From the NCBI GenBank assembly GCA_022826155.1, contig JAJDVL010000016.1, positions 1 through 45,596 of the forward strand: a stretch of DNA of 45,596 nt. Reading direction: 5' to 3'. This document shows, piece after piece, positions 26,701 to 45,596 of the stretch; the stretch's first letter is position 1; every line of letters begins with the position of its first letter. Under the pieces are notes generated by a model, which saw nothing but the letters and a program-made list of their open reading frames with translations, did not search any database and was not told the origin of the DNA. The DNA comes from Prochlorococcaceae cyanobacterium jk18x22bins.40 (GTDB taxonomy: Bacteria; Cyanobacteriota; Cyanobacteriia; PCC-6307; Cyanobiaceae). A program made the position numbers and the translations under genes.

Positions 26701-28221
26701 ATGCTTGCCCGTTGCACCAGTGCCGCCATTGTTGGGGTGGAGGCTTGTCCCGTGGTGGTGGAGGCAGATTTAGGCCCTGGCCTGCCGGCGTTTCAGATTG
26801 TGGGTTTACCGGATACGGCCGTTCAGGAATCCCGCGAGCGAATCCGCTCTGCCCTGCGCAACAGTGGTCAGCGCCCGTTGGTGTCTCGCCTGACCATCAA
26901 TCTGGCTCCGGCCGCCTTGCGCAAACAAGGCCCCAGTTTTGATTTGCCCATGGCCCTTGCCCTCCAGGCCGCCGCCGGCCGCATTCCCCTGACCTGGCTG
27001 GAGGGCCTTTGGGCCACAGGGGAGCTGGGGCTGGATGGCAGCTTGCGGCCGGTGCGCGGGGTGCTGGCTATGGCTGAGGCGGCCCAGGCCGCGGGGGCCA
27101 GACATCTACTGGTGCCCCAAGCCAACGGGGACGAGGCGGCCCAGATTGACGGCCTCTCCGTGCTCGCCGCGGCGGACCTGAACGAAGCCCAGAATCAACT
27201 GAACAACCCCCAAGTACACCCCGCCCCGGATCAAGGCCGTTTTGCGGGGATCGTGAATGAGTTCAGGTTTGATCTCAGGGATCTGCAGGGGCAGAGCCAT
27301 GGGCGGCGGGCCTTGGAAATTGCCGCCGCCGGTGGACACCACATGCTCCTGGTGGGGCCGCCCGGCTGCGGCAAAAGCGTGTTGGCTCGCTGCTTGCCGG
27401 ATTTGTTGCCACCACTCTCCATGGAGGAGGCTCTGGCGGTGCGGCGCGTCCATTCGGTGGCCTTTGCCCAGCCGGAGGCGGGCCTGCGTAGCCAGCGCCC
27501 CTTCCGTGCCCCCCACCACAGTTGCACCCCGGCAGCTTTGGTGGGGGGCGGCTCCCCCCACCCGGTGCCCGGTGAAGTCAGCCTGGCTCACCACGGAGTG
27601 TTGTTTCTCGACGAGCTGCCGGAATTTGGCCGTCATTGCCTGGACCACCTGCGGGAACCTTTGGAGCAAGGGGCCATTGACATTGCCCGGGCCGGTCAGC
27701 GGCTGCGCTTTCCCTGTCAGTTTCAACTGGTGGCGGCGGCCAACCCCTGCCCCTGTGGCTGGTGGGGGGATCCGGTGCATAGCTGCAGTTGTGGTGATGC
27801 CGTGCGTCGTCGCTATTGGCGCCAAGTGTCAGGCCCCCTGCTGGACCGCATTGATCTCCATGTGCCGGTGCGACGGCTTTCACCCACGGAGGTGAGCCGT
27901 CCCGTCGCCGCGGAAACCACCGTCCAGGTGCAGCAGCGCCTGGACATCAGCCGCCAGAACACCAACCAGCGCTTTGGCCGCCAACTGTTTGATAACCGCC
28001 TCCTGGATGGCCGTCAACTGCGCCTTTGCAGCCCCCTCAGCAGCGCCGCCCGGGACCTGCTGGATCGCCTCGCTGACCGTCTCGGCCTCTCCATGCGCAG
28101 CCTTGATCGCCTCGTGCGGGTGGCTCGCACCATTGCTGATCTGGCAAATTCCGAACGTATCGAAGCCGAACACCTGGCGGAGGCCGCCACATATCGGAGT
28201 TGTGATCCGGGCGTGACCTGA
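26701..28221 (+). CDS. comM: YifB/ComM family Mg-chelatase-like AAA ATPase
   Basis: Protein of 506 aa. An N-terminal Lon-like domain ([20 protein letters not shown], then [13 protein letters not shown]) leads to an AAA module with Walker A GPPGCGKS near residue 219 and [13 protein letters not shown] as Walker B. A cysteine-rich insert ([13 protein letters not shown]) precedes the C-terminal helical domain. ComM is a hexameric helicase that aids branch migration during natural transformation. Together with dprA it suggests intact transformation genes. Confidence 0.93.
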
Positions 28222-28322
28222 CGGGAGGTGAGGAGCGTTCATGCCCACTGGTCAGGGCCGTGTTCCGGAGGGACACGGCCGCAACCATCAACCTTCAGGA
28301 TGGAAGTTCTTCTGTCGACACC

Positions 28323-28919
28323 ATGGACATCCGGTCCCGTGTTCCACTGGTGAATTCCTCGTCCGCCCGCCGTGAGACCTTGCGGCAGATGCTGGCCCGT
28401 CAGGCCTACAGGCGTGGCGACTTCCTCCTGGCCAGTGGTCGGCGTAGCGAGCACTACGTGAATTGCAAACCCGTCAGCCTCAGCAGCAGCGGCGCCATGC
28501 TACTGGCGCCGCTGCTGCTGGAGGCGGTGGACCCCAAGGCCCAAGCTGTGGCGGGCCTCACCATGGGTGCCGATCCCCTTGTGAGTTGCGTGGCCATGGC
28601 CGCCGGCCTTGCGGGCCGACCATTGGATGCCCTCATCGTGCGCAAAGAGCCCAAGGGCCATGGCACAGGCGCCTGGATTGAAGGTCCACTGCCGGCGCCT
28701 GGCGCCCCGGTGACGTTGCTGGAGGACGTGGTGACCACGGGCGGCTCCTGTCTCAAGGCGGTAAAGCGGTTGCGGGAGGCAGGCTATGCCGTTCAGGAGG
28801 TGGTGGCCGTTGTGGATCGCCAGGACGGCGGGCAAGCCGCCCTGGCCGCTGAGGGCCTGCGCCTCAAAGCCCTCTTTCTGCTGGAGCACATCAGCACCCC
28901 GTTGGAACACCAGTCATGA
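28323..28919 (+). CDS. pyrE: Orotate phosphoribosyltransferase
   Basis: Protein of 198 aa from the ATG at 28323; the frame stays open upstream to 28260 but that lead has no conserved features. It joins orotate and PRPP to form OMP in pyrimidine synthesis. [16 protein letters not shown], the PRPP motif [11 protein letters not shown] and [14 protein letters not shown] are present. It is coupled to ygfZ by an ATGA overlap. Confidence 0.95.
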
Positions 28920-29944
28920 CTGCCCCCCTGCCTTTCCCCCACTGGCTGAGCCAGGCCTTGCCGGAGCCCGGTGCATGGCCGGTGTGGACTGTCCGTTCCG
29001 TCCACCTGTTGCATCTCACCGGCGCTGATAGCTTGCGCTTTCTCCATGGCCAAACCACCCAGGACCTGAACAGCGCCCCGCCTGGTTGTCTGCGTCGCAG
29101 TTGCGCGGTGACCGCCACAGCACGACCTGTGGCCCTCCTGGACGTGTTGGCGGACAAGCACGCAGCCCGGTTGGTGGTCCTGGCTGGTGACGGGCCGGCG
29201 TTGCATCAGCGTTTTGACCGCTATCTGTTTCCCGCGGATCAGGTCACCCTGCTGCCCATGGTCCAGGCGCAGCAGGTGAGCGTGCTGGGGGAAGCCGCCC
29301 CGGCTTTGTTGGCAGCCGAGGGCATCACCATGGCTCCCCCGGGTGCCGGGTGGTGCTCGGTGGCCGAAAGCAACCACCAGGCTTTGCTGCTGCGGGGCAC
29401 GGATTTTGGCGACGGCGTACCGGGATTGCGGCTGCTGGTGCCGGAGCCCCACCCGTTGCCGCCATGGCTAGACCATGTTCCCCGGCTGACCAGGGTCCAG
29501 GCGGAGTTGCTGCGGCTCCAGCAGGGAACGCCAGCATGGCCAAGCGAGATCAACGATGCCTTCAATCCCTTTGAACTGGGCCTTGCGGGGGCCGTAGCCC
29601 TCAACAAGGGTTGTTACTTGGGGCAAGAGGTGTTGGCCAGGTTGGTGACCTACGACGGCGTCAAACAGCAACTGCGCCTTTGGCGCAGTTGCATCGCCCT
29701 TGGGAGTCTGCCTGAGGACAACGTGCTCCAAGGCGAAGACGGCGCCCGTGCCGGAGTGGTCACCTCCCGCTCAGCCCTGGACACGGGCAGCATGGGTCTG
29801 GCCGTCGTGCGCCGAGCCTGGCTGGGGGCATCCACCTTGCGCCTGGGCCAGGAGGCCATCAGCCTCAGTCTTCCCGCAGGGGCAGAGTTTCCTGCCGGCA
29901 CAAATCCTTCCAACGAGCCCCCGCCCTTGGAGACTCACCTCTAA
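28916..29944 (+). CDS. ygfZ: Folate-binding protein YgfZ (GcvT-like)
   Basis: Protein of 342 aa. The family signature KGCYLGQEV (at ~228-236) contains the conserved cysteine required in YgfZ for iron-sulfur cluster maintenance, and [10 protein letters not shown] is the N-terminal block. YgfZ binds folate and supports repair of Fe-S enzymes. Coupled to pyrE by a four-base overlap. Confidence 0.88.
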
Positions 29945-29999
29945 AAGTGGGAAAAGCATGTGGGTGTGAACCACGCCCCATGTCTTGACCGATAGCCCC

Positions 30000-30187
30000 A
30001 GCACGCCCGCATCCAACCCCCAAGACCAGGCCCCGGTCAAGGCTGGTCCTTCGGTAGCGCCGCGGCGCTAAACAAGCGGATTGACGAGGTGAGGGCAGGC
30101 TTCGAAGCGGAGATCAAAGTCGAGGTCAGGGGCATGGGCGAGAAACTGGACCGGGTGCTGGAGACCCTGCTGGCGGCCCAATTCTGA
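30000..30187 (+). pseudogene. Startless coiled-coil fragment
   Basis: An open frame bounded by a stop at 29993 and TGA at 30185 encodes a basic/proline lead and then an amphipathic helix (AALNKRIDEVRAGFEAEIKV, then EKLDRVLETLLAAQF). It lacks an upstream ATG; a GTG at 30089 would give only 32 residues. I read it as the tail of a decayed small coiled-coil protein, lying just beyond the 3' end of the ankyrin gene. A functional small protein from the GTG cannot be excluded. Confidence 0.4.
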
Positions 30188-30198
30188 GTTGAAGTCAA

Positions 30199-31317
30199 TC
30201 ATGCCATTGCTGCTTGAATCACGTGCACCACGCTCCAGCGTTCCATGGCTTGTGCAACCGCAAGTGGAGTCCCCCCGGTCTTGCCCGAAGCATGAAGGTT
30301 GGCACCAGCATTGATGAGGGTCCGGGCGACTTCCGCGTGCCCTTGCAAAGCCGCAATGTGCAGGGGAGTCCATCCATTCTTGCCGACAGTGTGAAGGTTG
30401 GCGCCAGCATCAATGAGAAGCTGAGCGGCTTCTGAATGCCCCTCCAAGGCCGCAACGTGGAGTGGAGTCCCGCCATTCTTGCCGACAGCATGAAGGTTGG
30501 CGCCAGCTCTGACGAGAACGTTGACAACGTCCGTATGCCCCACCCCAGATGCAATGTGCAGGGGGGTCCAGTCATTTTTAATTGTAGTATGAAGATTGGC
30601 ACCGGCATTGATGAGAGCCTGGGCAACGTCTGCATGTCCTTCCGAAGCAGCATAATGCAGCGGAGTCCAGCCATGTTTGTCTATGGCATGAAGGTTGGCG
30701 CCAAAATCGATGAGAAGCTGAGCAATCTCCGAATATCCCTCCAGGGCCGCAACGTGCAGGGGAGTCCAACCGTTCTTGCCGACAGCATGAAGGTTGGCGC
30801 CGGCATGAACCAGAAGCCGAGCGACCTCTGGGTGTCCCTGCAATGCTGCAACGTGGAGTGGAGTCCCACCATTCCTGCCGGTTGCATGAAGGTTGGCGCC
30901 GGCACGGATGAGAACCTGGGCAACTTCTGAATATCCCACCACAGCCGCAACGTGCAGAGGGGTCCAATTATTTCTGGTTGTAGCATGGAGATTAGCGCCG
31001 GCATTGATGAAAACATTGGCCACTTCTACATTTCCCTCCGAAGCCACAACATGCAGCAGGGTCCAGCCGTTCATGTCTGTAGCATGAAGGTTGGCGCCAG
31101 CATTGATGAGAGCCTCCACCTCTTTTTCATCCCCCTTACGCACTGCCTCGTGGAGTGGCGTCCTGCCATCTTGATCTACGGGATTGACACGGGTGTCGAT
31201 TTCGGCGAGAGCCTTGGTGATATCTGGATATCCTTCGTAAATGTCCTGATGGAGTGGCATCGTCTTGCCACCTTGATTTACGGGATTGGCATGGGCGCCG
31301 GCATTGAATTTAGACAT
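30199..31317 (-). CDS. Ankyrin repeat protein
   Basis: Protein of 372 aa made almost entirely of ankyrin repeats: nine regular 33-34-residue units (pattern GWTPLHVAALEG, then AGANLHA) plus a degenerate unit at each end. Repeats are nearly identical to each other, so array length may vary between strains. There is no signal peptide or membrane segment, so any export would need another route. Ankyrin proteins bind partner proteins; in sponge symbionts they are thought to affect host phagocytosis, but a target here is unknown. The start ATG at 31317 has no strong ribosome binding site. Confidence 0.93.
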   Translation of the reverse strand: MSKFNAGAHANPVNQGGKTMPLHQDIYEGYPDITKALAEIDTRVNPVDQDGRTPLHEAVRKGDEKEVEALINAGANLHATDMNGWTLLHVVASEGNVEVANVFINAGANLHATTRNNWTPLHVAAVVGYSEVAQVLIRAGANLHATGRNGGTPLHVAALQGHPEVARLLVHAGANLHAVGKNGWTPLHVAALEGYSEIAQLLIDFGANLHAIDKHGWTPLHYAASEGHADVAQALINAGANLHTTIKNDWTPLHIASGVGHTDVVNVLVRAGANLHAVGKNGGTPLHVAALEGHSEAAQLLIDAGANLHTVGKNGWTPLHIAALQGHAEVARTLINAGANLHASGKTGGTPLAVAQAMERWSVVHVIQAAMA

Positions 31318-31756
31318 TGATCAGAAGTGATGGGCTAAGGCTTTGCTTCCAGCGTAGGCCAGCACGGCAAGGTTTTGCCTCGAAAATGATACAAATTAAA
31401 TGATACAAATTAAAAAGTGCGTCATCTCCAGGTAAAGCAAAGCGTCCCAATAGCAGACCATACCACAGGCAAACGACGTGGCGCGAGAAGGCAGCGCCCA
31501 CAGTGCCTCATTCCCGGAGGACGTGATGCCGGTGGCCGAGTCAGGTGGGATAGCCATTGTGGAGATGCCGGCCTTGCCGTTGACCGGGTGCCACCCGGGG
31601 GCTCCCCACCCCGCCGGTTGGCGTTGGGCGTTGTACACCAGATCCCCCTGGTGGCGAAGCCGCAGGAAGATGCTGTCTGCCCCATTCGCTGCGATCCCTC
31701 ACCAAGGCGAAATTGTCGGACCAAGGAATTAGCATTGATGCTCTTGTTGCCAACAC
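31318..31756. other. Unassigned region between ankyrin gene and mnmE
   Basis: These ~440 bases carry no gene I can support. Overlapping short frames on the minus strand (about 31400-31700) have plausible composition in more than one frame, as in a decayed gene, but I could not name one. A perfect tandem duplication of 14 bases (AATGATACAAATTA) covers 31385-31412 near the ankyrin start, in AT-rich DNA that may hold its promoter. Confidence 0.4.
31385..31412. repeat. Tandem 14-base direct repeat
   Basis: Two head-to-tail copies of AATGATACAAATTA sit about 70 bases upstream of the ankyrin start codon, in the likely promoter region. It could alter promoter spacing by slippage. Sequence is seen directly; effect is inference. 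Confidence 0.7.
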
Positions 31757-33133
31757 ATGAGCGGCCCGGGAAGCACCATTGCTGCAATCGCCACAGCCGT
31801 GGCTGCCGGTGTGGGCAGTGTGGCCATTGTGCGCATCTCCGGTCCACAGGCACAGGCCGTTGGTCGGCGTGTATTCCGCCCAGCAGGCAAGCGTTATCAG
31901 GCATGGGAAAGCCATCGGGTGCTGTATGGCCATGTGGTTGAGCCCGCCAGTGGCCAGGTTCTTGACGAAGTGCTGCTGCTCTATATGCAAGCCCCACGCA
32001 GCTTCACGGGGGAAGACGTGGTGGAACTCCACTGCCATGGGGGGCTGGTTTGTGTGCAGCGGGTGCTGGAGCAGGTGCTGGCCAATGGCGCCGAGGCCGC
32101 AGCACCCGGAGCGTTCAGCCAGCGTGCTGTTTTACATGGACGTTTGGATCTCACCCAGGCAGAAGCTGTGGCCCAGGTGATCAGTGCCCGCAGTCGCCGG
32201 GCGGCGGCGCTGGCGTTGGCAGGCTTGAATGGGGGGATTTACCGCCGCATTGAGAGGCTACGCCAGCAACTGCTGGAACAGTTGGCCCACTTGGAAGCCC
32301 ACCTGGACTTTGAAGATGACCTACCACCTTTAAATCCTGAAACTGTGAAGGAGAAGATGCAGGCAGTGGCCGAGGATTTATCCCGACTTGTGGAAGATAG
32401 TCGCCGAGGTCAGCGACTACAACAGGGGCTACGGGTTGCTATTATTGGTTGTCCCAATGTGGGAAAATCCAGTCTTTTGAATTGTCTCAGCGGTCATGAT
32501 CGGGCCATTGTCACAGATTATCCTGGAACCACACGAGATATTGTGGAGACCGAGTTAATTTTAGGGGATGTGCCCATCACGCTGGTGGACACCGCTGGCA
32601 TCCGTCACACCAGCAACCCGGTGGAGAAGCTGGGCATTGCCCGTAGCCGTCAGGTCTTTACGCAAGTGGATGTGATTGTCTTGCTATTTGACGTGAACAT
32701 GGGTTGGAGTGAAACTGACCAGGCCCTTGCCAACGAGCTGCCGGAAGAGGTTCCTCAGTTGCGGGTCGGCAATAAAGTTGATCTACTGGACAAGAGTAGC
32801 AATCAATCTAATAATTTATCCAAGTTTCCCTTGGCCATTAGTGCGATGACAGGCCAAGGAATAGAAGCCTTCACCCAGGCCCTGCTCAATTGTTGTGGCC
32901 TTACAGATTTAGAGAGTCTTGACACAAGTCTTAATCGCCGCCAAATTAGTGTGGCCCAGAAGGCTATCGAGTCCTTGATCTGCTTAGACAATACAGCCAA
33001 AGCCGAGTTGCCTTGGGATTTCTGGACCATTGATCTGCGGGACGCCATTCAGCATCTCGGAGGAATCACTGGAAAAGACGTTAGTGAAGATATTTTAGAT
33101 GAAATATTTAGTAAGTTCTGCATTGGCAAATAA
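31757..33133 (+). CDS. mnmE: tRNA modification GTPase MnmE
   Basis: Protein of 458 aa. The N-terminal folate-binding/dimerisation domain (from TIAAIATAVAAGVGSVAIVR; FTGEDVVELHCHGG) is followed by a GTPase domain inserted in the helical domain: P-loop GCPNVGKSS near residue 231, then DYPGTTRD and DTAGIRHT, NKVD. The C-terminal CIGK carries the conserved cysteine. It forms 5-carboxymethylaminomethyl-uridine at the tRNA wobble position with MnmG. From about 32300 the coding sequence turns distinctly AT-rich while the protein stays canonical. Confidence 0.95.
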   Translation: MSGPGSTIAAIATAVAAGVGSVAIVRISGPQAQAVGRRVFRPAGKRYQAWESHRVLYGHVVEPASGQVLDEVLLLYMQAPRSFTGEDVVELHCHGGLVCVQRVLEQVLANGAEAAAPGAFSQRAVLHGRLDLTQAEAVAQVISARSRRAAALALAGLNGGIYRRIERLRQQLLEQLAHLEAHLDFEDDLPPLNPETVKEKMQAVAEDLSRLVEDSRRGQRLQQGLRVAIIGCPNVGKSSLLNCLSGHDRAIVTDYPGTTRDIVETELILGDVPITLVDTAGIRHTSNPVEKLGIARSRQVFTQVDVIVLLFDVNMGWSETDQALANELPEEVPQLRVGNKVDLLDKSSNQSNNLSKFPLAISAMTGQGIEAFTQALLNCCGLTDLESLDTSLNRRQISVAQKAIESLICLDNTAKAELPWDFWTIDLRDAIQHLGGITGKDVSEDILDEIFSKFCIGK

Positions 33134-33584
33134 TCGTTATTTCTATTATCTTACTATTCTCATATGGGACCCATTTATGGATTCAAAGTGAGTCTCGTAT
33201 GAGACGAAATAGTTCACATGCAGGGGTTTATAAAAGCTGTCTTAGGAAGACCTTGCCAAGCAGGTGAGGTTCCCTCGGAACGCGAGAATGACCGGGAGCA
33301 TATCGACGATTTTCAATCTCTCATCTATCTCATAAAAGACTCATATTAAGTCTAAAATCAAGACTCATATGATACGGATAAATATCCCCTGCTGGACGCG
33401 CTCCACCCAATGTCCCTCAAGTCAGTTCCAACAGGGGAAGTCTTCTTCGGTCCAAGGTCTGTCCAGTGGGCCTTGCCCTTGCCTTGAAAGCCTTGCGAAG
33501 ACTGGCGAGTTCAAGTTTGCCACACTGCGGTTTACGCAGTGTGGCAAGCATAATTGCCTGCCTCTGTGGCGTTTGGTTTTGGAT
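33134..33584. other. AT-rich non-coding region with repeats and hairpins
   Basis: No gene is supported in these ~450 bases between mnmE and the end of ureC. The first half is AT-rich and carries AGACTCATAT twice (33337-33346 and 33361-33370, period 24), with a related TCTCATAT near 33158 and a short dyad GTCTC-GTAT-GAGAC (33192-33205). CCCCTGCTGG near 33387 is nearly complementary to CCAACAGGGG near 33428. A perfect 13-bp stem sits at 33517-33547. Seen directly; no function assigned. Confidence 0.5.
33517..33547. terminator. Perfect 13-bp hairpin between convergent mnmE and ureC
   Basis: TTGCCACACTGCG and CGCAGTGTGGCAA flank a five-base loop (GTTTA). It lies about 40 bases beyond the ureC stop on the minus strand and 380 bases beyond mnmE. 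It lacks a U run on either strand, so it is not a textbook intrinsic terminator; a 3'-end stabilising structure or a regulator-binding dyad are alternatives. Confidence 0.4.
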
Positions 33585-35297
33585 TTAGAACAAGAAATAC
33601 CGCTGCGCCATGGGTAACACCTGGGCTGGCTCACAGATGAGCAACTGCCCATCGGCAAACACTTCATAGGTTTGGGGGTCCACCTGAATGGCAGGGGTGG
33701 CGGTGTTCAGCTTCATGGCGGCTTTGCCAATGCCTCCACGGGTGTTGCACACGGGAACACATGGTGTTTGTAAACCCAGGCGATGGGGCAGGCCATCGTC
33801 CACCGCTGCTTGGGAGACGAAGGTGAGACAGCTTGGGGCCATGGCCGCCCCGAAACTGGCAAACATGGGACGGCCGTGGACGGGTCCCGGGGTGGGGATA
33901 GAGGCGTTGGGATCCCCCATCTGGGCCCAAACAATGGAGCCACCCTTGAGCACCAGTTCAGGCTTGACCGCGAAGAACCCCGGTTTCCAGAGACAAAGAT
34001 CCGCCAGCTTACCCACCTCTACGGAGCCCACCTGGCTGTCAATACCGTGGGCAATGGCGGGGTTGATGGTCACCTTGGCCATATAGCGGCGGATGCGGTG
34101 GTTATCGTTGCGCTCGCTATCTTCCGGCAAAGCGCCCCGCTGCACCTTCATTTTGTGGGCAGTTTGGAAGGTGCGGGTGATCACTTCCCCCGCCCGGCCC
34201 ATGGCCTGGGAATCACTGGCAACGATGCTGAACGCCCCCAGGTCGTGGAGAATATCTTCTGCGGCAATGGTTTCTCGGCGGATGCGGGATTCGGCAAAGG
34301 CCACGTCTTCGGGAATGCTGCGGTCCAGGTGGTGGCAGACCATCAGCATGTCCAGGTGTTCCTCCAGGGTGTTGGCGGTGTAGGGCCGGGTGGGGTTAGT
34401 GGAGGAGGGCAGCACGTTGGCCTCACTGCAGATGCGGATGATGTCCGGCGCATGGCCGCCTCCGGCGCCTTCCGTGTGAAAGGTATGAATGGTGCGTCCG
34501 GCAATAGCGGCGATGGTGTCTTCCACATGGCCGGCTTCATTGAGGGTGTCCGTATGGATACACACCTGCACGTCGAAGCGGTCCGCCACCGTCAGGCAGC
34601 AGTCGATGGCGGCAGGGGTGGTGCCCCAATCCTCGTGGAGCTTGAGGCCACAGGCGCCAGCCCGCACCTGTTCCTCCAAGGCCTCCGCTTCACTGGCATT
34701 CCCCTTCCCGAAAAACCCCAGATTCACGGGCAGCCCCTCGGCCGCTTGCAGCATCCGCGCCAGATGAAAGGCGCCCGGCGTGCAGGTGGTGGCATTGGTG
34801 CCGGTGGCGGGGCCGGTGCCGCCCCCCAGCATGGTGGTCACCCCGCTAGCCAGGGCGGTTTCCACCTGCTGGGGGCAGATGAAGTGGATGTGGCTGTCAA
34901 TGGCACCGGCGGTCAGGATTTGCCCTTCTCCGGCAATGATTTCCGTGCCCGGACCAATCACCACGTCCACCCCGTCTTGAATGTCGGGGTTGCCCGCTTT
35001 GCCGATGGTGGCAATTCTGCCGTCTCGCAGTCCCACGTCCGCCTTGACGATGCCCCACCAATCCAGGATCAGGGCGTTGGTAATGACCGTGTCCATGGCC
35101 CCTGCCCCACGACTCACCTGGCTCTGACCCATGCCGTCCCGAATCACCTTGCCGCCGCCAAACTTCACCTCCTCTCCATAGATGCAACGATCCTGCTCCA
35201 CCTCCAGGACCAAGTTCGTATCCGCCAAACGCAATCGGTCCCCCACGGTGGGGCCATAGGTTTCTGCATAGGTGCGGCGATCCAGAGGGTAGGCCAT
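33585..35297 (-). CDS. ureC: Urease alpha subunit
   Basis: Protein of 570 aa, the catalytic subunit that hydrolyses urea with a di-nickel centre. HIHFICPQQ provides two nickel-binding histidines, GLKLHEDWG holds the carbamylated lysine near residue 218, and [15 protein letters not shown] and the flap region MVCHHLD follow. All hallmark residues I can see are in place, so the enzyme should be active. It is the last gene of ureDABC and is 35 bases from ureB. Accessory ureEFG do not follow it. Confidence 0.97.
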
Positions 35298-39553: not shown

Positions 39554-40237
39554 TCATGTATTGCCATTATTGAAGCAATCTCGGTCGCCAGTGCCAAAAA
39601 GGCGGTCGCCCGCATCCCCCAGACCCGGCACAATGAACCCCGCCGGATCCAGCTCCGGATCAATGCAGGCAGTATAAACCACCAGATCGGGGAAAGCAGA
39701 CCCAAGTTGCTGCAGGCCCGGTGCGGAGCAGAGCGCTGTAATCACCCGTAGCCGTTTGCCCTCCACCCCCATGGTGTTCAGGCGCTCCAGCACGGCCAGC
39801 ATGGTGGTGCCCCTGGCCAGGATGGGGTCCAGCACCAGCACTCCGGTCTGCTGGGCAATGGCGTCCGGCAAGCCGTTGTAATACCACTGCACGGTGCCCG
39901 CCTCCTGACCACGACGAAGCCCCACATGCCAAATCCGGGCATGGGGCAGCACCCCTTGGGCCCCTTCCCAGAGCCCCAAGCCAGCCCGCAGAACGGGCAC
40001 CACGGCCAGATCCACAGCCTGATCCACCACATGACCCGTGGCTTGCCCCAGTGGCGTGGTGACCGTCATGGCGTGATGGGGCAGCCAGTCCCGCAGGGCC
40101 TCGTAGCTCAGCCAGCGCCCCAACTCCTGCAGCGCGGTTCTGAACAGGGGAGCTGGTGTCCGGGCATCCCTGGCCACGGTGAGCCAGTGGGCAATGAGGG
40201 GATGAGGAGGCACCACAACCCGCAGTGTCAGCGCCAT
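39554..40237 (-). CDS. upp: Uracil phosphoribosyltransferase
   Basis: Protein of 227 aa that salvages uracil to UMP with PRPP. VVPVLRAGLG, VLDPILARGTTM (PRPP loop) and GDAGDRLFGT are present. The frame is open further upstream, but the ATG at 40237 starts at the conserved MALTLRVV and leaves a 69-base divergent gap to the lumenal pentapeptide gene. Links with the NCS2-like permease as nucleobase uptake and salvage are possible. Confidence 0.93.
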   Translation of the reverse strand: MALTLRVVVPPHPLIAHWLTVARDARTPAPLFRTALQELGRWLSYEALRDWLPHHAMTVTTPLGQATGHVVDQAVDLAVVPVLRAGLGLWEGAQGVLPHARIWHVGLRRGQEAGTVQWYYNGLPDAIAQQTGVLVLDPILARGTTMLAVLERLNTMGVEGKRLRVITALCSAPGLQQLGSAFPDLVVYTACIDPELDPAGFIVPGLGDAGDRLFGTGDRDCFNNGNT

Positions 40238-40306
40238 GGGGCAATCCTCTTCAAGGGGTCCGCTAGTCTGCCGTTGCCAGGGTACTTTCGACGCGAGGGC
40301 AAGGGG

Positions 40307-40816
40307 ATGGTTCATCTGGGGCGCCTGCTGGGGTTGGCGACGGCCATGCTGCTGATCCTCTTGCCCCCTGCTCCGGCATTGGCGATCACGGCGCCGGAGT
40401 TGCGCGGCGCCGGTGCCAATGCGGCCATCAGTGCAGACATGCATGGACGTCAACTGCAGGGGGCGGAATACATCAAGGCGGACCTGACCAAGGTGGATCT
40501 TTCCGCCAGCGATCTCACCGGCGCGGTGTTCAACACCTCCAACCTGAGTGGCGCTGACCTGCGGGGCGCCGTCCTCCGTGACGTGGTGGCTTTTGCCAGT
40601 CGGTTCAACGGCGCTGATCTACGGAACGCCGTGTTGGAAAACGGGTTGTTCATGCAAAGCAGCTTCACCAATGCACGAATCAGCGGGGCTGACTTCACGA
40701 ATGCGGTGGTGGACCGGAGCCAGTTGCCGCGGCTCTGCCAACGGGCTGATGGCCACAACAGCATTACGGATCGGGATACACGGGCTAGCCTTAACTGCCC
40801 CCAGCCCAAGGGCTGA
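40307..40816 (+). CDS. Exported pentapeptide repeat protein, thylakoid-lumen-like
   Basis: Protein of 169 aa. A signal peptide (LGLATAMLLILLPPAPALA) precedes runs of A(D/N)LxX-type pentapeptides (ADLTKVDLSASDLTGAVF; GADLRGAVLRD), forming a right-handed beta helix. Plant and cyanobacterial relatives are thylakoid-lumen proteins of unclear function. The upstream in-frame extension overlaps upp on the other strand and is not part of the gene; the ATG follows a purine-rich AAGGGG. Confidence 0.85.
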   Translation: MVHLGRLLGLATAMLLILLPPAPALAITAPELRGAGANAAISADMHGRQLQGAEYIKADLTKVDLSASDLTGAVFNTSNLSGADLRGAVLRDVVAFASRFNGADLRNAVLENGLFMQSSFTNARISGADFTNAVVDRSQLPRLCQRADGHNSITDRDTRASLNCPQPKG

Positions 40817-45298: not shown

Positions 45299-45596
45299 TC
45301 AAAACAAGGTAGAGAAGTTGAGCTTGAGGGAGTGATCGTCTGGAGTCGAGGAAGAGAAGTATTCCAGTCGTTCCGCTTCGATGGAGAACTCCCAAGGAAG
45401 AGCATGTGACTGTTCAGAGTAGGGAGTGACCGACCAGAGGAGGCCGTAGGTCCTGCTGGTGGGGGAGAGTGCCATTGCCACGGCAGGGGTCAGGGTGAGG
45501 CGGTCGTTATAGAAGGGGAAGCCATAGGCCAGTTGTGCTTCAAACCGTTGCCCGTTGCTGGGTGAGACATCCAGCCCGTCGAGCCCGTCCAGGACG
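45299..45596 (-). CDS. C-terminal end of outer-membrane barrel protein (5' end outside window)
   Basis: A frame open from the right edge to TGA at 45299-45301 gives the last ~98 residues. It alternates beta strands (NGQRFEAQLAYGFPFY; LTLTPAVAMALSP; TYGLLWSVTPYSE; PWEFSIEAERLEYF) and ends in LNFSTLF, a terminal phenylalanine as in outer-membrane proteins. It resembles the barrel ends of autotransporter-like proteins that carry Calx-beta repeats. This could be the end of a protein like the one cut at the left edge, but the link is inference. Confidence 0.65.
   Translation of the reverse strand, partial: VLDGLDGLDVSPSNGQRFEAQLAYGFPFYNDRLTLTPAVAMALSPTSRTYGLLWSVTPYSEQSHALPWEFSIEAERLEYFSSSTPDDHSLKLNFSTLF

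What the first reader, a model, noticed from the sequence alone, without database searches (positions are those of the whole stretch)
30199..31317. Ankyrin array of near-identical repeats beside decayed DNA
Nine highly similar repeat units are flanked by a startless coiled-coil fragment and an unassigned gap, between ygfZ and mnmE. That is a sign of a recent insertion hotspot. The likeness of the units favours copy-number variation and host adaptation.
Basis: partly seen in the sequence, partly recalled or inferred. Interest (0 to 1): 0.65.

Follow-up and report, generated by a model that had tools for sequence, protein, structure and literature searches.

The report
Sponge-symbiont ankyrin protein, fixed repeat order
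This is one of the many ankyrin-repeat proteins expected in a sponge-dwelling cyanobacterium; its repeats are not near-identical or freshly multiplied, but an old, fixed series whose probable binding face has been kept almost unchanged between two species.

Summary
The ankyrin gene is real: 30199-31317 (-), 372 aa, ten 33-aa units plus a C-terminal cap. The genus is the 'Candidatus Synechococcus spongiarum' clade. The units are not near-identical: units 2-10 are 61-83% alike in DNA and 45-79% in protein. A relative (G006, SP3) has a 78%-identical orthologue with the same number of units in the same order, so the array is old and its copy number stable in that pair. The sister genome G004 holds only a dead remnant, in which exactly eight units (792 bp) were lost between units 2 and 10. 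ygfZ and mnmE are neighbours only in the window's clade; the DNA after ygfZ differs in every species compared (CRISPR-Cas9, helicase, P450 and others), so the spot is variable, but the gene itself is not a recent insertion. The coiled-coil fragment is the tail of a multi-copy membrane coiled-coil family. Unexpected: the probable ligand face evolves under strong constraint (dN/dS 0.07 against 0.33 on the back), unlike other ankyrin genes of the genus. Enrichment of such genes in this symbiont is published. New member of a known kind.

The parts
30199..31317 (-). Ankyrin-repeat protein gene, 372 aa, start ATG at 31317, stop at 30199-30201
   Evidence: start supported by alignment with G006 orthologue
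31261..31317 (-). N-terminal 19 residues, no hydrophobic signal segment seen
   Evidence: sequence; pLDDT below 50 for residues 1-51
31162..31260 (-). Unit 1, degenerate (12-30% aa identity to other units; 45% to G006 unit 1)
30271..31161 (-). Units 2-10, nine ankyrin units of 33 aa (99 bp each)
30202..30270 (-). C-terminal cap (TPLAVAQAMERWSVVHVIQAAMA), also in G002, G004 remnant and G006
30047..30187 (+). Startless C-terminal fragment of a multi-copy single-pass membrane coiled-coil family
31318..31756 (.). Gap without a recognised gene; 31540-31753 is 85% identical to the same place in G004; 14-bp tandem repeat at 31384-31414; no Rfam match
26701..28221 (+). comM-like (Mg chelatase-related) gene, left anchor block
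28260..28919 (+). pyrE
28916..29944 (+). ygfZ
31757..33133 (+). mnmE

Best explanation
A conserved eukaryote-like ankyrin-repeat protein of a sponge-symbiotic cyanobacterium. It folds as a solenoid of about ten units, and its concave side (first helices and beta fingers) binds a definite protein target in a fixed unit-by-unit order. Shown here: the ORF, the predicted fold, the orthologue with the same unit order, purifying selection concentrated on the concave side, and the decay of the gene in one sister genome. Inferred: that the target is a sponge (host) protein and that binding helps the bacterium avoid digestion by sponge phagocytes, as reported for other sponge-symbiont ankyrin proteins tested recombinantly. 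How it would leave the cell is unknown; no signal segment was seen in the sequence and the genome has no VirB4 match. The array is old; only the local gene order is young.
For: Pfam Ank E 1e-77; AlphaFold2 solenoid, pLDDT above about 80 over nearly all of units 2-10, best PDB fold matches ankyrin-B, ankyrin-1 and DARPins. G006 orthologue 78% identical, same length, all ten G006 units match best the same-numbered window unit. dN/dS 0.235 overall; concave codons 0.068, convex codons 0.326, with similar dS (0.66 and 0.52). At positions equally variable between units, 13 of 108 concave and 39 of 99 convex residues changed (p 6e-6; position permutation p 0.003). All 10 genomes of the genus carry Ank domains, 15 of 191 others in the family do. 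Ankyrin proteins in all six Ca. S. spongiarum genomes and the proposed link to phagocytosing archaeocytes: PMC6506613; reported effect of sponge-symbiont ankyrin proteins on amoebal phagocytosis: PMC4850255.
Against: No direct evidence of export, expression or target. VirB4 (type IV secretion) not found in the genome. The gene is a remnant in G004, and no clear orthologue was found in six other genomes of the genus, so it is not essential for symbiosis. The concave-side test was chosen after seeing the alignment and rests mainly on one species pair; the partial G002 sequence agrees in direction only (6/50 against 12/48).
Confidence: 0.5

Rival explanations
1. It works inside the bacterium, as a scaffold or inhibitor that binds a bacterial partner; symbiont life merely tolerates or favours many ankyrin proteins.
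For: No signal segment seen in the sequence; no VirB4 match. Constraint on the binding face fits any fixed partner, bacterial or host. Ankyrin matches also occur in other cyanobacteria of the class, such as G028.
Against: Strong enrichment in the symbiont genus against the rest of the family; no neighbouring partner gene kept with it: neighbours are ygfZ/mnmE in the window's clade and ispG in G006.
Confidence: 0.27
2. It is cargo of a defence-rich variable spot behind ygfZ and acts in phage defence or counter-defence.
For: At the same side of ygfZ G005 has a CRISPR array with cas2-cas1-cas9 and G009 has a PLD-SNF2 helicase next to an MzaA-like gene.
Against: The G006 orthologue sits by ispG, not in that spot; other species have housekeeping or P450 genes there; PADLOC hits of the window protein are to ankyrin-bearing models and were taken as repeat cross-matches; no close relative found in viral contigs.
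Confidence: 0.08
3. One reading: a recently inserted array whose likeness reflects ongoing copy-number change and host adaptation.
For: G004 shows that recombination between units can remove exactly eight of them; the region behind ygfZ is variable across species.
Against: Units 45-79% identical in protein, matched in order with G006 at the same number; synonymous divergence like that of old neighbours; concave faces conserved, not diversified.
Confidence: 0.08
4. A gene on its way out: a former symbiosis gene now decaying in this clade.
For: Remnant in G004; unit 1 degenerate and fast-changing in the window (dN/dS 0.64 against 0.18 for units 2-10); G002 copy lacks the usual stop codon at its end.
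Against: Window ORF intact; dN/dS of the G002-window pair is 0.24, well below 1.
Confidence: 0.07

Closest known systems
Ankyrin-repeat eukaryote-like proteins of 'Ca. Synechococcus spongiarum' (reported in all six genomes, PMC6506613)
   Same: Same genus, same repeat family, high copy number per genome
   Different: The copy-level facts (unit order kept between species, constrained concave face, collapsed remnant in a sister) were not seen in the passages read
Sponge-symbiont ankyrin proteins that alter amoebal phagocytosis (Nguyen et al. 2014, cited in PMC4850255)
   Same: Ankyrin solenoid in a sponge symbiont
   Different: Those were other proteins; no activity has been shown for this one
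Legionella Dot/Icm ankyrin effectors (NCBIfam AnkY, AnkH and others)
   Same: Cross-matches through the repeats
   Different: All scores far below the family cut-offs (177 bits against 600 for AnkY); no VirB4 match here
Human ankyrin-B repeats R13-24 and DARPins (PDB 5y4f, 6mol)
   Same: Same solenoid fold, 38-41% identity over 320-350 columns
   Different: No sign of shared target; likeness is that of consensus ankyrin units

Membership tests
Ankyrin-repeat proteins (Pfam Ank clan) | Multiple 33-residue units above gathering score | tested here: met
   Ank_2 257 bits against 27.3; nine Ank stretches
Ankyrin-repeat proteins (Pfam Ank clan) | Helix-turn-helix-loop solenoid | tested here: met
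   AlphaFold2 model and PDB fold matches
Sponge-symbiont eukaryote-like ankyrin proteins | Enriched in the symbiont lineage against its kin | tested here: met
   10/10 genus genomes against 15/191 others of the family
Sponge-symbiont eukaryote-like ankyrin proteins | Alters phagocytosis or reaches host cells | not testable with these tools
   needs expression experiments
Dot/Icm type IV ankyrin effectors | Score above the equivalog cut-off of an Ank effector family | tested here: not met
   best 177 bits against 600
Dot/Icm type IV ankyrin effectors | A type IV secretion ATPase of the VirB4 kind in the genome | tested here: not met
   PF03135 gives no match in the 98.5% complete genome; Dot/Icm-specific ATPases not searched
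Phage-borne ankyrin proteins (ankyphages) | Close relative on viral contigs | tested here: not met
   none in IMG/VR by close-relative scan; distant ones not excluded
Recently amplified, copy-number-variable repeat array | Units more alike within a genome than to same-numbered units in a relative | tested here: not met
   same-numbered units 72-89% DNA between species (mean 81%), units 2-10 61-83% within (mean 69%)

The most novel reading that the evidence does not exclude
Within one symbiont genus, ankyrin proteins fall into two regimes: this one keeps its binding face fixed, unit by unit, across species, pointing to one conserved target shared by different sponge hosts, while another family (the contig C42 protein and its relatives) changes its binding face faster than its back, as expected for host-specific recognition.
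Probability: 0.3. Interest if true: 0.55.

Novelty: new member of a known kind. Interest (0 to 1): 0.3.

Why it matters
Sponge symbionts carry many ankyrin genes with no known targets. A simple comparison of the two faces of the solenoid between orthologues separates a protein with a fixed surface from ones with changing surfaces, which tells an experimenter which bait to use first for target capture. It also warns that repeat likeness read by eye is not evidence of recent copy-number change.

Tried and rejected
Viral origin: no close relative in viral contigs. Type IV export: no VirB4. RNA elements at 28000-34000: none in Rfam. Promoter scan of 29900-31800: nothing above chance. The founding papers on Ca. 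S. spongiarum genomes (mBio 2014 and 2015) are not held. Searching ygfZ-mnmE as an ancestral interval failed because there is none: in relatives outside the genus with both genes on one contig the two lie far apart, e.g. about 476 kb in G017. Whether ispG in the window genome lacks an ankyrin neighbour cannot be told: it lies at a contig end.

Full report
What is there. The window is contig 2 of a 1.99-Mb, 51-contig genome, 98.5% complete. Its closest named relatives by MnmE are Synechococcus sp. SB0662_bin_14 (93%), Candidatus Synechococcus spongiarum SP3 (83%) and LMB bulk15M (82%), so it belongs to the sponge-symbiont clade. The ORF at 30199-31317 (-) encodes 372 aa. It has ten units of exactly 33 residues and a 23-residue C-terminal cap; Pfam Ank E is about 1e-77. 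The AlphaFold2 model, from a two-sequence alignment, is a regular solenoid over units 2-10 and the cap, with low confidence for residues 1-51; its best fold matches are ankyrin-B, ankyrin-1 and DARPins.

The units are not near-identical. Units 2-10 share 61-83% of DNA and 45-79% of residues, mean 69% and 60%; unit 1 is degenerate. Tandem Repeats Finder reports 71% matches for the 99-bp period.

The array is old and in fixed order. G006 has an orthologue of 373 aa, about 78% identical over its whole length. For every G006 unit the best match in the window array is the unit of the same number, in DNA and in protein; in the other direction this holds for eight of ten window units in protein and seven in DNA. 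Synonymous divergence between the two copies (0.51) is like that of comM (0.41), ygfZ (0.43) and mnmE (0.60). G002 has the last units and the cap behind ygfZ, 85% identical, then its contig ends. No clear orthologue was found in G001, G003, G005, G007, G008 or G009; their best matches are 59% or less.

Collapse in a sister. In G004 (SB0662_bin_14) the place between ygfZ and mnmE holds only a remnant: unit 2 runs into the end of unit 10 and the cap, the offset between the two aligned pieces is 792 bp, exactly eight units, the start region is gone and the frame is broken. Recombination between units therefore does occur, but the only case seen is loss in a broken gene.

The place. comM-pyrE-ygfZ stay together in the genus genomes where the block could be read, but ygfZ and mnmE are neighbours only in the window genome and G004, and probably G002. 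In G006 the ankyrin gene lies upstream of ispG (my reading of the translation), while in the other genomes where ispG was found no ankyrin match lies on the same contig. mnmE keeps another neighbour, a DUF2062-like gene by my reading of its translation, in G001, G003 and G006. In relatives outside the genus the two genes are far apart. Behind ygfZ each species has something else: a CRISPR array with cas2, cas1 and cas9 in G005, a PLD-SNF2 helicase in G009, and by reading of the translations a cytochrome P450 and queC in G003, pheS and a transposase-like ORF in G006, and phosphoglucomutase, aspS and pyrG in G001. So the junction is variable, but no baseline for gene-order breaks in this genus was computed.

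The coiled-coil fragment. Its 46 residues match 14-20 places in most genomes of the genus that were searched. Intact members have a proline-rich N-terminus, one probable membrane helix (PWWRRW...) and a coiled coil of variable length that ends in a KLDRVLETLLA-like motif. None could be assigned to a specific Pfam or NCBIfam family; the hits are coiled-coil matches to unrelated families. G002 has the same fragment at the same place, so it was there before that split.

Selection on the two faces. With the unit numbered from the T of TPLH, positions 1-9 and 26-33 (first helix and beta finger) form the concave, ligand-facing side of ankyrin solenoids and 10-25 the convex side; this is general knowledge of the fold, and the helices of the model fall accordingly. 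Between the window and G006, dN/dS is 0.068 for concave and 0.326 for convex codons of units 2-10, with dS 0.66 and 0.52. The concave side is not merely framework: at positions that vary between units, diversity between units is equal on both sides (0.54), yet 13 of 108 concave and 39 of 99 convex residues changed between species (Fisher p 6e-6; permutation over positions p 0.003). The partial G002 copy points the same way without significance. In other ankyrin pairs of the genus the odds ratio is 1.0 to 2.5, the opposite or no bias. The partition was chosen after viewing the alignment and one species pair carries the result, so it is a lead, not a proof.

How it most likely works. Shown: predicted fold, order, constraint, loss in a sister. 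Inferred: a fixed target bound along the concave side; most likely a host protein, since the genus is rich in such genes (6-32 Ank matches in each of 10 genomes, against 15 of 191 other genomes in the family, at most 5 matches each), since such proteins are reported in all six Ca. S. spongiarum genomes with a proposed role against phagocytosis (PMC6506613), and since other sponge-symbiont ankyrin proteins altered amoebal phagocytosis (PMC4850255). Export is unexplained: no signal segment is seen and VirB4 is absent.

Verdict. A real, ordinary member of a known class, misread as near-identical and recent. The collapsed remnant, the variable junction behind ygfZ and the contrast between binding faces are worth a note.

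Noticed in passing
window 30047-30187; L192, L195, L197, L199, L202: Multi-copy family, about 14-20 matches per genome in most of the genus genomes searched (6 in incomplete G002, none in G001), with a proline-rich N-terminus, one probable membrane helix and a coiled coil of variable length ending in a KLDRVLETLLA-like motif; some copies look decayed; no specific Pfam or NCBIfam family.
   Followed up: partly
L182 5538-10518 (G005 contig 170): CRISPR array of about six repeats with cas2, cas1 and a 1080-aa Cas9 directly behind ygfZ, the place held by the ankyrin gene in the window.
   Followed up: partly
L181 6636-10950 (G009 contig 61): PLD-SNF2 helicase (1058 aa, DrmD-like and HKD+Snf2 matches) and a gene with an MzaA-like match directly behind ygfZ.
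   Followed up: partly
L188 / L236 (G000 contig 22, about 113.5-121.2 kb): Cluster of large ankyrin ORFs (464, 509 and 973 aa); the 973-aa protein has an 81%-identical relative in G003 and a 54%-identical one in G009, so it may be a core ankyrin protein of the genus.
   Followed up: partly
L189 (G000 contig 42, about 27-28 kb): A 357-aa ankyrin ORF at a contig end whose concave positions change faster than convex ones against relatives in G003 and G005 (odds ratio 2.0-2.5, p about 0.02), the reverse of the window protein.
   Followed up: partly
L176 (G002 contig 10): The G002 ankyrin copy lacks the stop codon at the usual end; the frame runs on for over 100 residues antisense to the coiled-coil fragment and ygfZ.
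   Followed up: no
window 45312-45557: 72% identical DNA to the region upstream of mnmE in G007 and G009, where long frames read like a surface or autotransporter-like protein.
   Followed up: no
window 39926-40816: Pentapeptide-repeat protein, 296 aa.
   Followed up: no
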